A stretch of DNA of 64,000 nucleotides from Norana najaformis. Its lineage: Eukaryota; Annelida; Clitellata; Crassiclitellata; Hormogastridae. The first letter of the stretch is position 1; every line of letters starts with the position of its first letter. Below, piece by piece: positions 6,307-64,000 of this stretch. A program made the translations under genes and the position numbers. The stretch spans positions 1,845,715 to 1,909,714 of the forward strand of contig OZ029927.1 in the NCBI GenBank assembly GCA_964023275.1, given 5' to 3'. Under the pieces are notes generated by a model, which was not told the DNA's origin, did not search any database, and saw only the letters and a list, made by a program, of their open reading frames with translations.

Positions 6307-7345
6307 AGTTGGAAGAGTCCAGTTTTCTTTTATGGATGTGACTAGAGCCATTCAAGATGAAGGGTGTTTTGGAGAAGGTGGCTGGACACCTAATGGTCTC
6401 CTGCTTTCAAATTGAAATTCTATACTGATACATTTGGCATTTGTTGGATGATCAATGGTTTTCATGGACAGCAGCTGCTCTGTGAATCTGTCTTACAGTG
6501 TTGAAATGCCACATTCGTTTCCTGCTGATAGTGTACAGAGGTGTTCTTTTGAACAGCCATCTGATTTACTCCGGCTGTTCTGTTATTTGCTTTTGTTTTG
6601 TGACTCTGCTGCCCTGGTTCTGTCCTGCCCTGTTTCTGATAATTTGGCCTTTATCTGCAAGTTGCTTGCTCACTTTTTTCTGCGTCTGCCATTTGCAACT
6701 CTGTCAGGGATTTTTTAAAGTGGAAAATGTTCATCTGGAAGAATACTTCTGCATTTTCCAGAGAAGTATCGAGGACGGTGACCATGCCGACTGTTGTTGT
6801 TTTTGTTCTTAATGTCATTGTTGATGTTATCAGTACTGATGATGTTGTTGTTATTGATTTGGTTGCTGATGATGTTAAATGCTGGTGATGTTGTTGTTAT
6901 CATCTTGTTATTAGAGATGTGTTGTTCTTGATGATGGTGTAGTTGATTATGAATGTTGTTGTTGAACTGTAGTTGGTGTTGATGATGCTCATTTGGTATT
7001 GCTGAAGTTCTCTTTTGTTAATGTTACATTTTGTTGTAAATTTGGAAAAAAGAAATCATTAATCGCAAACTCTTATGTCTCATTGAATATGGATTAATCC
7101 ATTATTTTCTTGCTAAAGGATAGAGGTTTTATCAAAATTTCACAAAACTTTATAAAATTTATACAAACTTTATAAAAATATATAAAATTTATCAAAATTT
7201 TATAAAATTTCATAGAGGTTTATTTATAAAATTATCAAAATTTCATAGAGATTTTATAAAAATTAGACATCAGTACTTATTACATTGGATATTTTTGATC
7301 TTTGATCTGCAAAACAAGTTAAATGTGTTACTTTGTCTGCTGCAG

Positions 7346-7579
7346 TTTGAATATGTCATGACGCAGAAAAAGTCACTGTATGACTTCCTGGTGGAAGCGG
7401 AATTGAGTCAGTACTACAAGCAGTTTCTTGATGAACTCAAGGTCACAACGGTGTCACAGATCAAGTACGTTACGGATGTCGACCTTCTTGAGATCGGCAT
7501 GACAAAGCCAGAGATACGGAGGCTGAACAAGTTCTTCAAGAAGCAATGCAACCAGGGCACTCTAAACAAACTGAAGGAG
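7346..7579 (+). CDS. TNK2: TNK2-like exon 1: N-terminal SAM-like domain
   Basis: It follows an acceptor ending CTGCTGCAG. The start ATG is at 7358 and the donor is GAG|GTAGAG. It encodes [18 protein letters not shown] and [15 protein letters not shown], matching the ACK N-terminal helical domain that precedes the kinase. Confidence 0.85.
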
Positions 7580-10500
7580 GTAGAGGCAGATTTTCTGTTG
7601 TTTGAAGTTAACATGCGAAACTGAGGTTTGATTTTGTTCAGTTCTTCAGAATTCTATGCAGTCTGCTCAAAGTATCTTAGAGAGTACATAATCGTCGGTG
7701 CTTCGTAATATCCAAGCCCTTACCTTATAAAATGCCTACAGCTGTATCATCTGACACTGGCCTGGTTAGCTTGGTGGTTAAAGCATACATCAAGGCGCCT
7801 CTGTGCTTGAGTATGCCGGTTCACATGCTGATAGTGGCTGTATTGCTGAGATCTGAATCTCGGGCTAGCGCGATTCGTATGTGGGGACCCTAAACGGCGT
7901 GGCAACCACTCAAATGGGCAGCAGTGGTGAAGGATCACACTGGATCAATTCATTGAAAAATGAGCAAGGTTGAGCCTGTACGGTTGCTATAGAAACCATG
8001 TACGTTTTACGTTTACTATTACCCAGTCTGAGTTATGCACCTTATCCAACCGCCCACTGGGTGGTGCTTGTGTTTTTGCATTGACCAACACACACATGAG
8101 TTACACAGCAAATATAGGGAGTGGCATATTTTCATGTACTATATTGCAGCATGAAAATTTATTGTTGAGCAAACAATCACACACACACACACACCATTTA
8201 AACTCACCATCAGTTTCCAAAATTAATTTTAAAAGATTAGTAACATTTTCTTGCTGCTGCATCGTTTACCAGATCTTATCAGATTACTTGGCTTCAGTCT
8301 GACTTGATTTGTTCCACTCAGTAGGTTTTATCTGTTCTGCATGGATTAACTCTGAACTCTGAACTTAGTCCAGTATGAACTGTTTGGATTGGGTGAATTT
8401 AATCTACTCAGGTCTGTTCAGCTTGATCTCATTTTCACTGCTTAATTCTGAACTGGTCTGGTCTTCTTGTTTCTATCTAACCTGATATGGTCTGAACTGA
8501 TTTATTCTTTGTATTACTTCACAACGTCTGGAAATGTCTTTTCACTGCACTGACTGCCAGCCTGATTAATTAATTATGAATGCTTTATTGTTATGAATAT
8601 GTTACTAATCTTTTAAAATTAATTTTGGAAACTGATGTTGAGTTTAATTGGTGTGTTTGTGTGATTGTTTGCTCAACAATAAATTTCAGGTGATGTTAAA
8701 TAAATAACAAATCTCAACTGATGTTAAATTTAAATGGAGTTTGTGATTGATTTCTCATTGATAAATCTCAGTTTGACTCTGACGGTTCATGTGCTTTGTT
8801 GTTGAAATATGCTTTGGGTGTGGTACTCATTTACCAGGGTAAAATATTGTTAAAGTACTTGACCTCTGAACTGTTAAAGGTCATCGGCTATTACAACGTT
8901 AATTCATCTATAGAATCTATAGTTCAAAAAGTTACATAGCAAAACACTTCTGTCATCGCTAGCCTTTGTATGTTTACCATATTCAGTTCTTGGAAATGCA
9001 TGCGTTGTTTTGTATTTGTTCATCCTTTTTATTTTTGTGAATGGCAGATCTTAATTCGAGGCCAGGAGGAGTTGAATACTTCAAAATCTCGACCTGGTGC
9101 CAGTAGGTCACCGGCACCCATTTCAGCAGAGACTGTTAAGCAGGTGATTGATGCAGAGTCTGTTGTGGTACAAGGGTTAATTGGAGAAGGGGAATTTGGA
9201 CATGTTTACCAAGGCATATGGAAGAGAGACCCTGGGGCCAAGGTGAGAGTTTGCAATTAATTTATTGTCGTTTAAACCAGAAATGACAATAATGATGATA
9301 AGAAAACATTTTTAAAATCCTGTTGGAGCAGTATCCATCAAGCTGTGAACCTGTGAATTGCTGTTGAATAGGCCTGAGTTTTTCAGTTAGCAAAATGCTT
9401 AGCATCATTAGCAGTTTTGCCTTTTCATTTCTTAATCAGACTTTCCTTCATCTGTAATCCTAATTTCCTTTTAGCCTTCGTCCTCAGTGCCTTTGATTCT
9501 GATTGCTTTTACCAAAGTCTTGCCTTTTTAAGGAATCCCACCCTGATCAGTCTTCCCATTTCTCTCAGCTTAAACACTTCCCACCCTAGCCTCTTCTCTC
9601 CTCCTCTCTCTGGTCTCCTGGCAGCTGGACTTGGTTCTTGATTTGGCATCTTTGGACAACCCCACGGACTTGATGCAGCGCTCGTGAATAAGCTGGTGCC
9701 CTGCGCTTAGCTTTTAAGTAACACTTTAGAAATTTCGAGTTTATGATTACGTTTATGAATGCTATATATGATGTGTATTAGTGTTTTATTTTTAGGCTAT
9801 GGATACTATAAGTGATTTGTTTTTGACCTGAAATCCTCCTAAGTGGCAGTTGATAATGGAATTGGAATTGTTTTTTTGATTTTTTGATTTTTTAGTATCA
9901 TTGAATGGCATATATCATTATTGGTTGTTTTTGATTCTTCAGACACAGGTGGCTGTTAAGACAATTAAGCAATCTCTGATAAAAAGATCAACATCACAGT
10001 TTCTGCAAGTGATGTCCGAGGTTCAGCAGCTGAGACATGAGAACATCGTTTGTCTGTACGGAGTGGCACTGACAGATGATAACATCATGTTGGTGAGAAG
10101 TTAATGTGTCAAGTAATTTGTGATCTGTTCATTTGTAAATATGTAGATTTATATAGGTCTCAAAGGTGCTTGGTTTGATTGATTTCAAGTTGATTGGTTT
10201 CAACTTTATGGAAACTGTTTTAGCCCAAGATTGGAAACATCTCCTTTTGTATTTTATAATGTGGCTTTCTAGCCTTGATTTTGATCTGTGTGACCTGGGT
10301 TTGACCTAGGTGTTACTTTCTCTTGATAAATGGATTATTTAGAAGTTGGATCACTGCCAGTTACCACCGGCATTTGACCTGGCTTCTCCAGTGGATTATG
10401 ATTTTGATTGTGATTTTCATCGCTTGAAGCAACCATCGACTGGTGCCTTGGGCATTATGATAACAGTGCTACAGACGTCTTTAGAATAGATTAGATTACA

Positions 10501-58736: not shown

Positions 58737-60519
58737 CCTCTAATAGCCTCCCATTCTAAAACAATGTATGTATGTATGTATGTATGCATGTGTTTTGTCT
58801 AAACGCCGAATATTATGAATACATACTTTCTGAATATACTTCATTGAGATGGCCTCATTTTCGCGAGGATCTACTGTTAGAGGTAATGTGAAACGTCATA
58901 ATGTTGAAATACATATAGAATATGAATTAAGCCAAGTAATATACGCTTTTGCAGCATATAAGATCTAAAGCAATAACTAAATTGAGTAAATATCTCATAG
59001 TACACTCTTCGGGGGAATGCTTGGTAAGAGCAGACACTAGTGAAGCTGAAATACAGAGAGACGCAAACTGAGGTCGACAATCACTAGAAGTTTTGTCCAT
59101 TAATTTTACTTCAAAATAATGAATAGTACATGTTACAATGTGATTGTGTTTTACTACCAGACAGCTAATTTCTATGAGTGTTCTTGATACATTGATGTTT
59201 GTTAATTCCAGATATACTTTTAAGAGTGTAATTAAAGTACATGTAAAGCTCACACGTTACATGGATGGCACACGTATCTCGCTCTTCGACCTTTAGGCTG
59301 GCAATGGTCGAATCCAAGTACATGCATGGTGACAGAGGCATGTATGCGCAAATAACTTGCCCAGGATCGTTACACTGAGTCCCCTCAGCAGGCTCGAACT
59401 CACAAAAGGTTGACCACGGACCAAATTCGCTACATACGGATACGGTGTCTACCTGGTTTAGTTCGCAAGATCTTCAAAATTCGCCAAACATACCTCATGG
59501 TTGAAGTATTTCTATATGCAAACGAAGTGCTTCTTCTGCTTCGATTGAAACAACTGAAATTTCTAAATTTCTCGTTAAATTGTAACATAAACATCGACTG
59601 ATATATTTAACCTAACGATAGGTAGGCCCTATGCTGTCGTATACGCATGTAAAACTATGCGTCCTTCCAGCGCATCTAGGCTGCGCATACTAAAAACTAT
59701 CGATCGATCTAGAAGACGCCAGATGCTCCTTGCTGTTTTAAGTTCTTTCGTCGCCCTTTAACACTTAACATACTGTTAGTTAAAGTTTGGGTTTTTCCGC
59801 CGTCGCCCTGAATTCTCTGTCACCCCGCCCACGTTACCCTGTTTCGCGCGCACCTGTCTCCACTTCGCTACGATTTGACTATTCCTCATTGGATATAATG
59901 CTATCAGTCAACTTATAGGTTAAAGCAGTCTTTTGCATCCAACTGCATACCTATGTATGTAGATACGTAGGGAGGTAGGAAAGTGTATGGCATATATGTG
60001 TACATGCAGTATATGTATGTATATGAACATTTATTCTGCGTCTTTTGTAACCTCTCAGCAGCTCCTCGAAGGCAATAAGTCGACGACAGGTACCACTGGT
60101 ATTCAGGGGTGGAGAGGAATTCGGTGAGTCTGTGAATGACAGACATATAATCCCTCGTTCTAAACTCTGCAGACTCTGCAAGACCCTAGCGTCACTTGGC
60201 CTCCCCGCTTCGAACTCTAGATTCGCCATTAGCATCTTTGCTTATAAAATCAAATTAACGATTGGCCGTCATTTCGATTCATTTTCATTAAGTTTTTCAC
60301 GCAACTAGGACATCACGATTCACAGACAGACGTCGAATGAATTGATTATTTTGATGTCTTGAGTTTCAAAGGACGCAGCCTCTAAACGTCTGTCAGCATG
60401 TCTGGATTGTGTGGCGTTCGTGTGATTTGTGTGGTCTTTCGTATAATTAATGCTTTGTCATCATATATTATAAACCTAAATATACAGAAGGGTATTAGAA
60501 TGAAAAAACACAATAACTA

Positions 60520-60710
60520 CGATGCTACTTCCACTACCACTACTACTACTACCAACCACAATCCATCTACTACTGCTATTACTACTATACTACCACGACG
60601 GCGACTTTCACCACCACAACCACCACCACCACCACAACCACCATCATCACTACTACTGCCACTGCTGCTGCTGATGCTACTACTGCTGCTGGTGCTACTC
60701 ATACTATCCT
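60520..60710 (+). repeat. Trinucleotide microsatellite
   Basis: ACT, CCA and TGC repeats in blocks; open frames on both strands (poly-Thr/Pro/Leu and poly-Ser/Gly) are repeat products. Confidence 0.92.
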
Positions 60711-61165: not shown

Positions 61166-61448
61166 ATACATGTATATACACGACAGTACTTACAACTGTA
61201 TAACCCGCTTATCACTCACTGTGGCTTGCTCAGAAACTGAATAAGATCTAAGATAGGACAACTACTCAGGAAGAAAACGACAGCTGAAAGGGAAGAACAG
61301 AATGGATGCAACAAATTACCAAAGGCTGTAAGTAGGTAAGAAAATGACGAGAAAGAGAAAGGGAGAGACAGCGAGCAAAATGTCGAGGAATAAAGAAAAG
61401 CGACGAAGAAGGATAAAATAGATGTTTTACAGATATTTACATACTACA

Positions 61449-64000
61449 CTGGCCAACAGAAAAAATTTTTTTTCTTGTTGCCTTCGGTTTTAGAACTGTT
61501 ATTGGGGTAATTTTGAGCGCTGATTCAGAAAATGTCATTGGATTGAGTGCATCAGGTCTAGTTTCTGAGATATCGTCGATTTTGTAAAGAAAACCCAGTC
61601 CACTCTTTAAACGATGTCTTTGGCAAAACTAAAATGTCATAATAAGCTTTATTTATGGCTAATTATAATTCTTGCTGATTCATATAATGCCTACATCCTT
61701 ATAATGTAAAATCAGCATATCTTGCCGCGTGCTGAGATATTGCTGATTCAACGAAATAACTATTCCGTAGCTTACAGCTTACTCAGCACTAAATTCATGG
61801 CCTCATTTAGAATTTATTTGTGCTTATACAGCGTTTCATGGTTTCGAACTATGTAAATAGATTATGCTGAAGTCAGCATTTATAGCCTATATAAACCGCC
61901 TTCTGAAAGCTAGGGAAAAAGTCGTCTTAGGGCATATTAAGAGTTGGTCGCAAGAACAATCTGTGAATGTGAACATTAAATAACTACATGTTCTTACTAT
62001 TTTTTAGGTTAGTCACTTAATTCCTCAGATGCGAACATCCTTAAGGTTATGGCTACTTCCAGACGGAGCTGCATTAACCATCCAGACATATTCTGCTACA
62101 TTTGTGGGGAATACACACTAAAAGCAAACAGGAAACCGATTTCTGAGTTTGTAAATAGAGCATATGTAGGTTATTTTGGTGTCAAACTTGGAGATCAAGA
62201 TAAGCAATGGGCTCCTCATACAGTATGCAAAACTTGTATTGAACAATTGCGCCACTAGACAATTGGAAAGAGAAGCTGCCTGAAATTTGGTGTACCGATG
62301 GTTTGGAGGGAACCGATAAACCACTTCGACGACTGTTACTTTTGTATGGTTAATATCATAGGCATCAATCGAAATAATCGTCACAAGTTGTCTTACCCTG
62401 ATATACCTTCAGCCAGGAGACCTGTTCCGCATTCGGATATTGTACCAGTTCCACCTTTTCGCGAACTACCTCAGCTCTCAGACGATGAGACTTGCATGTC
62501 CAATATCGGACAAGATGACGAAAGTGAAGAAAGTGGGGGCAGTGACAGTGATTTCCAATCAACTTCACACAGTGAACGTTTTGACCAAAAAGAGTTGAGT
62601 GATCTGATCAGGGACTTAAATCTTTCCAAACAGTCCTCTGAATTGCTTGCGTCCAGACTAAAGGAAAAGAATGCACTTCAGCCTGGAACGAAAATTACAA
62701 TTTATAGAAACAGAGAAAAGGATTTGCTGCCATTCTTTACCGAAGACAACAACCTAGTATTCTGTAATGACATCAGCAACTTATTGAAGAAAATTGGTCT
62801 GTCGGATTACAGCCCAGATGAGTGGCGTCTTTTTATCGACAGTTCAAAACGTAGTCTGAAATGTGTGCTTTTAAATAACGGCAACAAATTTGGTTCTATT
62901 CCAATCGGTCACTCCACCAGGATGAAAGAAGAGTACAATGCCATCTCTTTATTACTGGAAAAGATAAAATACAAAGAACATCAATGGGTAATTTGTGTAG
63001 ACTTGAAGATGGTAAATTTCCTCCTTGGTCAACAAAGTGGCTACACAAAGTATCCCTGCTTTTTGTGTCTTTGGGACAGTAGAGCCAAGCATGAACATTG
63101 GACAAGAAAAGATTGGCCTTCGAGGAAAGACATGGTGGTTGGAGCTCAAAATGTAATCAAGGAATCTTTGGTGGCACGAGATAGGATCATACTGCCACCA
63201 CTACATATAAAGCTAGGCCTGATGAAACAATTTGTCAGGGCTTTGAATAAAGAAGGTTCATGCTTCGAATACATAGTACACAAGTTACCAGGAATTACAA
63301 TGGAAAAATTGAAGGCTGGAATCTTCGATGGTCCACAGATCAGGCAACTTATGAATGACCCACTTTTCATACCATCAGTGATTGAAATCGAATCTTGTGC
63401 CTGGTCTTCCTTTGTTCTTGTAACTAAAAATTTTCTTGGCAACAAGAAGGCAGACAATTATGCACAACTAGTAGAGGATATGCTTCTTCATTTCAACAAG
63501 CTTGGCTGCAACATGAGCATTAAAGTCCATTATCTCCACAGTCACTTAGATCGCTTTCCAGAGAATCTTGGTGACTTCAGCGAAGAGCAAGGTGAAAGAT
63601 TTCACCAAGACATCAAAACAATGGAAAATCGATATCAAGGAAGATGGGATGCACACATGATGGCAGACTATTGCTGGAATATTATGCGCGATTGTTCCGG
63701 CAGATGCCACACTCGGAAATCGTACAAAAGGAGCTTCTTCGGTGTCGAATGACTTGAAATTTTTATAACAAACTTGTTCTGTTTGGTATCACATAAGTAC
63801 AGTTTCAGGTACTACCATTTTCTTTTAAGTATTTGTATTATTATGTTTATTTAGTGTATCACATAATAAATTGAGCACTACATAATTATAGCTATAGCCT
63901 TATGTCTTATGGGCGAGCAGAGGCAAAGACTGGTATATGGCATAATGTTCTATATCTCGAAAACTAGACCTGCTGGGAGAAAACTGGTGCCTTTTCTGGA
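61449..64000 (+). mobile_element. DNA transposon-like element, right end outside the window
   Basis: CACTGGCCAACAGAAAAAAT at about 61449 is the probable left end. CAGGTCTAGTTTCTGAGATA at 61553 reappears reverse-complemented at about 63953-63972 (CAGGTCTAGTTTTCGAGATA on the other strand). Flanking text also agrees in inverted orientation: TTCAGAAAATG at the left, TTCCAGAAAAGG reading in from the right edge. One long coding frame lies between the repeats. The outer right terminus, and so the target duplication, is not in view. This arrangement is that of a cut-and-paste transposon. Confidence 0.6.
62049..63752 (+). pseudogene. Transposase-like protein of an uncharacterised family, one in-frame TAG
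   Basis: A single frame of 568 codons runs from ATG 62049 to TGA 63752, broken only by TAG at 62256-62258 (codon 70), where Trp (TGG) would fit the sequence. The N-terminus has a zinc-binding pattern (CYIC at 16-19, CKTC about 40 residues on) and GDQDKQWAPHTVC. Then PMVWREPINHFDDCYFC and an acidic/Ser-rich hinge follow. The C-terminal half has CVDLKMVNFLLG, YPCFLCLWDSRAKHEHW, HYLHSHLDRFPENLGDF and SEEQGERFHQDIK. A conserved Asp, a CxxC, an HxxH-like segment and a later Glu are compatible with a DDE-type nuclease, but this is inference. I recall similar proteins as uncharacterised multi-copy predictions in arthropods and other invertebrates. The frame could be a recent pseudogene, or use readthrough. 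Confidence 0.6.

What the first reader, a model, noticed from the sequence alone, without database searches (positions are those of the whole stretch)
61449..64000. Transposon of a poorly described family with a nearly intact 568-codon gene
A long frame with an N-terminal CxxC...CxxC finger and a C-terminal CVDLK...YPCFLCLW...SEEQGERFHQ core lies between inverted copies of CAGGTCTAGTTT. The inverted repeats support a mobile element rather than a host gene, while the protein matches none of the well-known transposase superfamilies that I can recognise. A single TAG is the only break, so the copy is young.
Basis: partly seen in the sequence, partly recalled or inferred. Interest (0 to 1): 0.72.

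Follow-up and report, generated by a model that had tools for sequence, protein, structure and literature searches.

The report
Young Chapaev3-type jumping gene family
The stretch is one copy, with a broken gene, of what looks like an ordinary cut-and-paste jumping gene of the Chapaev3 kind, a probable distant cousin of the enzyme that shuffles our antibody genes, which multiplied recently to many hundreds of nearly identical copies in its host's genome.

Summary
The element runs from 61447 to 68 bases past the window end (2622 bp), between copies of CTA. CAGGTCTAGTTT is not the terminus: it starts 107 bases inside a ~150-bp imperfect terminal repeat that ends CACTGGCCAACA. The genome has 2903 exact CAGGTCTAGTTT against 69 for the backward control. 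Of 35 full-length copies, 32 have a perfect 3-bp target duplication; 22 of the 32 are TWA, and 26 of the 32 lie between A and T. These are published hallmarks of Chapaev3, as are the transposase motifs C(2)C, LH and H(4)H, all present here and mostly kept in at least four older families of the same genome. The burst is young: 44 copies differ from their majority by 0.46% on average, and 23 keep a frame of 560 aa or more. The window copy has a TAG, a changed base near its right tip and the second-highest divergence of the 44. Not shown: fold (prediction failed), a tree with named Chapaev3 proteins, activity. Kinship to RAG1 rests on motifs; profile scores were not significant.

The parts
61444..61446 (.). 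target-site duplication CTA, left copy; the right copy follows the element, which ends 68 bases past the window
   Evidence: L009: ATACTA|CACTGG..CCTGTG|CTATAG
61447..64000 (+). Chapaev3-type DNA transposon; continues to the place that would be window 64068 (2622 bp in all)
   Evidence: L009:448-3069, 98.5% identical to the copy in L014, which has an unbroken frame
61447..61458 (+). left terminus CACTGGCCAACA
61447..61600 (+). left imperfect terminal inverted repeat, about 150 bp; limits carried over from copy L014, where 101 of 140 aligned bases match the right repeat
   Evidence: score 84 against a maximum of 30 in 200 shuffles
61553..61564 (+). CAGGTCTAGTTT, inner part of the left repeat
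62049..63752 (+). transposase frame of 568 codons, broken by one TAG in this copy; intact 567-aa frames exist in other copies
62094..62345 (+). N-terminal cysteine-rich domain, three CxxC pairs (residues 16/19, 60/63, 96/99); possibly the Chapa domain
   Evidence: weak zf-AD match below Pfam's cut-off; comparison with RAG1
62256..62258 (+). in-frame TAG stop that breaks this copy
62838..62840 (+). proposed first catalytic Asp (residue 264)
   Evidence: 12 of 12 rows that have a letter there, of 15 rows
63000..63002 (+). proposed second catalytic Asp (residue 318)
   Evidence: 10 of 11 rows with a letter
63057..63068 (+). C(2)C motif CFLC, residues 337-340, 19 residues after the second Asp
   Evidence: 12 of 13 and 11 of 13 rows with a letter
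63201..63206 (+). LH motif (PPLHIKLGL), residues 385-386
   Evidence: L 9 of 13, H 11 of 13 rows with a letter
63528..63545 (+). H(4)H motif HYLHSH, residues 494-499
   Evidence: 11 of 15 and 10 of 15 rows; the misses are in broken copies
63582..63584 (+). proposed catalytic Glu (residue 512, SEEQGERFH)
   Evidence: 14 of 15 rows
63927..64000 (-). right imperfect terminal repeat, inner part (limit carried over from L014); its end lies at 64068 outside the window
63961..63972 (-). CAGGTCTAGTTT in the right repeat

Best explanation
It is a copy of an autonomous cut-and-paste DNA transposon of the Chapaev3 group (CMC / CMCT clade). Proposed mechanism: a 567-aa single-frame transposase binds the ~150-bp imperfect terminal repeats, probably helped by its N-terminal three-CxxC domain. 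An RNase H-like D-D-E site with a C2/H2 zinc insertion cuts at CAC..GTG. The element is joined into A-TWA-T sites with a 3-bp stagger, and repair of the gaps gives the 3-bp duplication. Shown: ends, duplications, copy number, young age, intact frames in other copies, conserved motifs. Inferred: the D/D/E assignment, the fold, the chemistry, the role of the N-terminal domain and present activity. This copy cannot make the full protein; it could move only with transposase from another copy, and one base near its right tip is changed.
For: Paired termini in high copy number. 32 of 35 full-length copies with a perfect 3-bp duplication; TAA 13 and TTA 9 of the 32; A before and T after in 26 of the 32. 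The published Chapaev3 rule is CAC..GTG ends, TWA duplications between A and T, motifs C(2)C, LH, H(4)H, and a 2289-bp example coding 556 aa (PMC4079192, passages and section 14). CMCT signature D..D..C(2)C..H(3-4)H..E with CA..TG ends (PMC12730594, passages). The same residues are mostly kept across four older families of the genome, whose pieces are 33-70% identical. A sister family ends in CACTGGTCAACA, and its copy L073 has a TTA/TTA duplication between A and T. Two copies with no difference, 14 kb apart, have unrelated flanks.
Against: No named Chapaev3 protein could be compared directly; membership rests on published descriptions. Profile comparison with mouse RAG1 is not significant for the core: 9 of 100 shuffles at least as high, where the global mode gave no sensible alignment; 18 of 100, or 10 of 100 with cysteines kept, where the reversed sequence scored slightly higher. 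It is only suggestive for the N-terminus (probability 4.5%, E 0.0091; 2, 3 and 2 of 100 shuffles in three designs). The structure model was useless (mean pLDDT 30.6). Ten of the 32 duplications are not TWA. The ends of three of the four other families were not seen.
Confidence: 0.86

Rival explanations
1. A separate, unnamed lineage of the CMCT clade that shares ends, 3-bp duplications and zinc motifs with Chapaev3 by common descent but is not nested in it.
For: No transposase model of Pfam matches, sequence profiles do not reach RAG1, and PMC12730594 lists several distinct lineages with these motifs (passages).
Against: The specific Chapaev3 features, TWA between A and T, protein length, single frame, C(2)C/LH/H(4)H, all fit.
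Confidence: 0.1
2. An EnSpm/CACTA element in the strict sense (CACTR ends, 3-bp duplications).
For: CACTG ends and 3-bp duplications.
Against: No match to a CACTA (TNP2-type) transposase model among the Pfam results (that Pfam holds such a model is recalled). The target preference and the LH motif are those described for Chapaev3.
Confidence: 0.03
3. A domesticated host gene rather than a mobile element.
For: A long conserved frame with few breaks.
Against: Two termini, duplications in 32 of 35 copies, and 88 scored protein matches of 98-100% identity on 16 of the 17 contigs.
Confidence: 0.005

Closest known systems
Chapaev3 transposons (Merrow, Garfield, Conan; PMC4079192, passages, section 14)
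   Same: CAC..GTG ends, 3-bp TWA duplications between A and T, 2.3 against 2.6 kb, 556 against 567 aa, transposase motifs C(2)C, LH, H(4)H; single frame as reported for most Chapaev3
   Different: Direct sequence identity not measured; TWA in 22 of 32 duplications here whereas the paper reports it for all elements examined; CACTGGCCAACA and the ~150-bp imperfect repeats are this family's own as far as I saw
RAG1 / Transib (PDB entries listed)
   Same: 19 residues from the second Asp to the first Cys of CxxC (D318-C337 here, D708-C727 in mouse RAG1), then CxxC, LH, H(4)H and E; CxxC pairs in the N-terminus
   Different: Profile scores not significant; H499 to E512 is 13 residues, H942 to E962 in RAG1 is 20; 3-bp duplications, not the 5 bp of Transib (recalled)
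Other CMCT lineages (EnSpm/CACTA, Mirage, Plavaka, ESTA, Lanisha; PMC12730594, passages)
   Same: C(2)C and H(3-4)H between second D and E; CA..TG ends in most cases, 2-5 bp duplications
   Different: Target preference and the LH/H(4)H pattern fit Chapaev3; no tree was made here

Membership tests
Chapaev3 | 5'-CAC..GTG-3' termini | tested here: met
   32 of 35 full copies; CAC or GTG is altered at one end in L025, L029 and L030; L009 (window copy) and L052 differ at an inner base of the terminal six
Chapaev3 | 3-bp target duplication, consensus TWA | tested here: met
   32 of 35 copies have a perfect 3-bp duplication; TAA 13 + TTA 9 of the 32
Chapaev3 | insertion between A and T | tested here: met
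   26 of the 32 duplicated copies
Chapaev3 | transposase motifs C(2)C, LH, H(4)H | tested here: met
   C337/C340, L385-H386, H494/H499; kept in most of the rows with a letter among 15 rows from five families
Chapaev3 | D, D, E catalytic residues | tested here: met
   D264 12/12, D318 10/11, E512 14/15 rows with a letter; assignment by alignment only, no activity test
Chapaev3 | N-terminal Chapa domain | tested here: inconclusive
   three CxxC pairs; profile alignment with mouse RAG1 108-228 in register over the second and third pairs, but 2-3 of 100 shuffles score as high
Chapaev3 | clusters with named Chapaev3 transposases in a tree | not tested
   no Repbase or named Chapaev3 protein was at hand
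Chapaev3 / CMC | RNase H-like fold | tested here: inconclusive
EnSpm/CACTA (strict sense) | transposase matches the Pfam CACTA transposase model (model recalled) | tested here: not met
   no such match at E up to 10 or 1
Transib | 5-bp target duplication (recalled) | tested here: not met
   3 bp

The most novel reading that the evidence does not exclude
A Chapaev3 family, or a sister lineage not yet named, that is still jumping: hundreds of full-length copies with open frames and few short derivatives. That would make it a natural source of an active RAG1-related transposase, with its own ends and target rule, for mechanism work.
Probability: 0.3. Interest if true: 0.5.

Novelty: new member of a known kind. 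Interest (0 to 1): 0.3.

Why it matters
It adds a very young, high-copy member to a transposon group that, by published accounts, shares its catalytic layout and an N-terminal zinc domain with RAG1. PMC4079192 calls the biology of Chapaev transposons largely uncharacterized (passage); such a family could let it be tested. It also shows that general protein libraries (Pfam, PDB sequences) do not recognise this protein, so such genes are easily taken for unknown host genes.

Tried and rejected
Host gene: rejected, see the 32 of 35 duplicated copies and the 88 scored protein matches. Libraries: NCBIfam and PHROGs gave nothing at E up to 10; PDB sequences gave two unrelated matches at E 1.5 for the window protein and none for the N-terminus or the profile. 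Pfam gave only weak matches to unrelated families: zf-AD at E 0.00094-0.0043, below Pfam's score, and 20 others at E up to 1 in single members or up to 3 of 30 pieces, none of them a transposase. Relatives elsewhere: plasmids none; viral contigs none (0, 7 and 29 pattern stretches, none confirmed); prokaryote genomes none (36 and 148 pattern stretches, none confirmed). Profile comparison with RAG1: not significant for the core, suggestive only for the N-terminus. Structure: one thin-alignment model, useless. Short derivatives could not be counted genome-wide; among the 43 pairs in the first 17 Mb of contig C1 two are clearly shorter, 1670 and 2108 nt. The selection count on 44 copies says little: singleton changes in the frame are 148 replacement, 55 silent, 11 stop, where 3845, 1017 and 241 single changes are possible.

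Sampling limits: apart from the window copy (L009), the copies measured come from the first 17 Mb of contig C1. One search used 54 loci (L009-L062); three of them (L057, L059, L060) had no match to the element, and copies lacking an end were left out of the 35. L032 and L033 share flanks (198 and 199 of 200 letters) and are one insertion duplicated, so there are at most 34 independent insertions.

Full report
What was checked. The window is part of a 608-Mb genome in 17 contigs (G000:C15:1845715-1909714). The inverted CAGGTCTAGTTT copies are there, at 61553 and 63961.

Boundaries. Sequence beyond the window (L009) gives the second end. The element is L009:448-3069, that is window 61447 to 64068, 2622 bp, with CTA on both sides. 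The left terminus is CACTGGCCAACA; the right one reads CACAGGCCAACA in this copy. CAGGTCTAGTTT begins at the 107th base of the element. In copy L014 the two terminal repeats align over 142-154 bases with 101 of 140 aligned bases identical; the score is 84 against a maximum of 30 in 200 shuffles.

Copy number. CAGGTCTAGTTT occurs 1525 times forward and 1378 times reverse against 38 and 31 for the pattern read backwards. With two per element this means roughly 1400 elements, near 0.6% of the genome if all were full length (my estimate). Of the first 100 listed sites, 86 form 43 plus/minus pairs; 39 of the 43 are 2402-2418 nt apart, the others 1670, 2108, 2369 and 2515. A protein search scored the best 88 of 6032 candidates; these 88 are 98-100% identical to the window protein, lie on 16 of the 17 contigs, and 87 of them have no stop inside the matched part. 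The query began after the window's own TAG, so that stop is not counted.

Target duplications. Among 54 loci (L009-L062) 35 full-length copies have both ends. 32 of the 35 have a perfect 3-bp duplication: TAA 13, TTA 9, CTA 2, TTT 2, and TAC, TAT, AAA, ATA, TCA, TGA one each. In 26 of the 32 the letter before is A and the letter after is T. Two of the 32 (L032, L033) are one insertion duplicated with its flanks. All but the window copy come from the first 17 Mb of contig C1.

Age. 44 near-complete copies differ from their majority by 0.46% on average (0.15-0.92%); 336 of 389 variants occur in one copy only. 23 of 44 keep a frame of at least 560 aa. Copies L046 and L047, 14 kb apart in opposite orientation, show no difference over the aligned element, while their 200-base flanks match only at background level (57 and 51 of 200 letters): two separate, very recent insertions. 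The family burst is therefore recent. With neutral rates of 1e-9 to 5e-9 per site and year (recalled) the mean divergence would be about one to five million years. The window copy, at 0.88%, is the second most diverged of the 44.

The protein. No curated model recognises the catalytic part and no PDB chain matches by sequence beyond two unrelated ones at E 1.5. To find out what is conserved I looked for other families in the same genome with degenerate patterns that exclude the main family's codons. SEEQGERFH with a TCN serine: 37 hits against 0 for the backward control. A YPCF-C-W pattern with a TAC tyrosine: 13 against 0. A third pattern gave 3 hits against 0; from their spelling I took them for mutated copies of the main family and did not fetch them. 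Fourteen loci (6 of the 37 and 8 of the 13) were fetched. They hold at least four further families: L069 (52% identity over 561 residues), L072-L076 (L076 61% over 549 residues; separate matches of 50 residues or more range from 30 to 70%), L070/L071 (33-52%), L063-L068 (31-50%). None of the 14 loci shows an unbroken frame of full length. On a query-anchored alignment of 15 rows, counting rows with a letter: D264 12 of 12, D318 10 of 11, C337 12 of 13, C340 11 of 13, L385 9 of 13, H386 11 of 13, H494 11 of 15, H499 10 of 15, E512 14 of 15. N-terminal C16, C19, C60 and C63 are kept in 6 of 6, 7 of 7, 8 of 8 and 8 of 8, and C96, C99 in 8 of 10 each.

Sister family ends. In L073 the element begins CACTGGTCAACA after CGATTA and ends with the complement of CACTGGTCAACA before TTATGA: a TTA duplication between A and T. 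L074 and L076 have the same right end and L075 one with a single change, followed by TAATTG, TTATAT and TTATAA. In the other nine fetched loci (L063-L071) and in L072 I saw no such end within the stretch held. The same rule thus holds in one further family and is untested in three.

Comparison with the literature. PMC4079192 (passages; section 14) describes Chapaev3: CAC..GTG ends, TWA duplications between A and T, and, for a 2289-bp silkworm element with a 556-aa transposase, the motifs C(2)C, LH and H(4)H. PMC12730594 (passages) describes the CMCT clade by D..D..C(2)C..H(3-4)H..E, with CA..TG ends in most cases and 2-5 bp duplications. PMC4411706 (passages) reports an N-terminal Chapa zinc domain in Chapaev, Chapaev3 and RAG1. 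[quoted passage not shown] Our element meets the Chapaev3 description on the points of ends, duplication, target and motifs; the Chapa domain is open.

Link to RAG1. The spacing between the second Asp and the first Cys of C(2)C is 19 residues in both proteins (D318-C337; D708-C727 on the fragment). The best local profile alignment falls exactly there, without gaps. But the score is not significant: 9 of 100 shuffles were at least as high, and its global mode gave no sensible alignment, 18 of 100, or 10 of 100 with cysteines kept, and the reversed sequence scored 18.65 against 18.63. For the N-terminal domain the alignment with mouse RAG1 108-228 (letters as printed) puts the second and third CxxC pairs in register; hhalign's own probability is 4.5% and E 0.0091, 2, 3 and 2 of 100 shuffles in three designs scored as high, and the reversed sequence scored 9.9 against 20.3. 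I treat the RAG1 kinship as likely from motifs and literature, not as proven here.

Mechanism. Most likely cut-and-paste: transposase binds the long imperfect repeats, cuts next to CAC, and joins the ends 3 bp apart into A-TWA-T. The duplications and ends are shown; cleavage chemistry and the role of the N-terminal domain are inferred from the clade. The fold is untested: the only model had pLDDT 30.6, and the second job failed.

Verdict. A real, young, high-copy transposon family of a known kind, most likely Chapaev3, with older relatives in the same genome. Interesting as a possible active member; ordinary as a discovery. I did not find this family described, but I ran only six answered searches of an open library, seeing mostly listings, and had no transposon database.

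Noticed in passing
L069; L070-L071; L072-L076; L063-L068 (places): At least four older, broken families of the same transposase group in the same genome, so this group has invaded or diversified repeatedly here.
   Followed up: partly
L020 (G000:C1:4019814-4029813): Four left ends in the same orientation about 2.3-2.4 kb apart with the preceding letters repeated (TATTATTA twice, GATGATAC twice), and one inverted CAGGTCTAGTTT at the end: a tandem array of element pieces, perhaps from faulty repair or local duplication.
   Followed up: no
L046 and L047 (G000:C1 about 13.879 and 13.893 Mb), also L041: Two copies with no difference over the aligned element, opposite orientation and unrelated flanks, about 14 kb apart; L041 differs from both by 0.04%. 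Looks like very recent movement.
   Followed up: yes
L032 and L033 (G000:C1 about 7.784 and 7.809 Mb): Flanks 198 and 199 of 200 letters alike in two places 25 kb apart: a segmental duplication that carried the element along.
   Followed up: partly
L019:235 and 2951: AATACATA then CACTGGGCAACTATATAT near TA-repeats on both sides of the copy, same orientation: a possible further element family with similar ends, lying in a microsatellite.
   Followed up: no
window 7124-7621 (+): Frame with a SAM domain of the TNK/ACK kinase type (Pfam SAM_TNK, E 3.5e-24): probably a host gene exon.
   Followed up: partly
window 60517-60702: Long stretch of short-unit repeats (ACC/ACT type) upstream of the element, giving low-complexity frames on both strands.
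   Followed up: no
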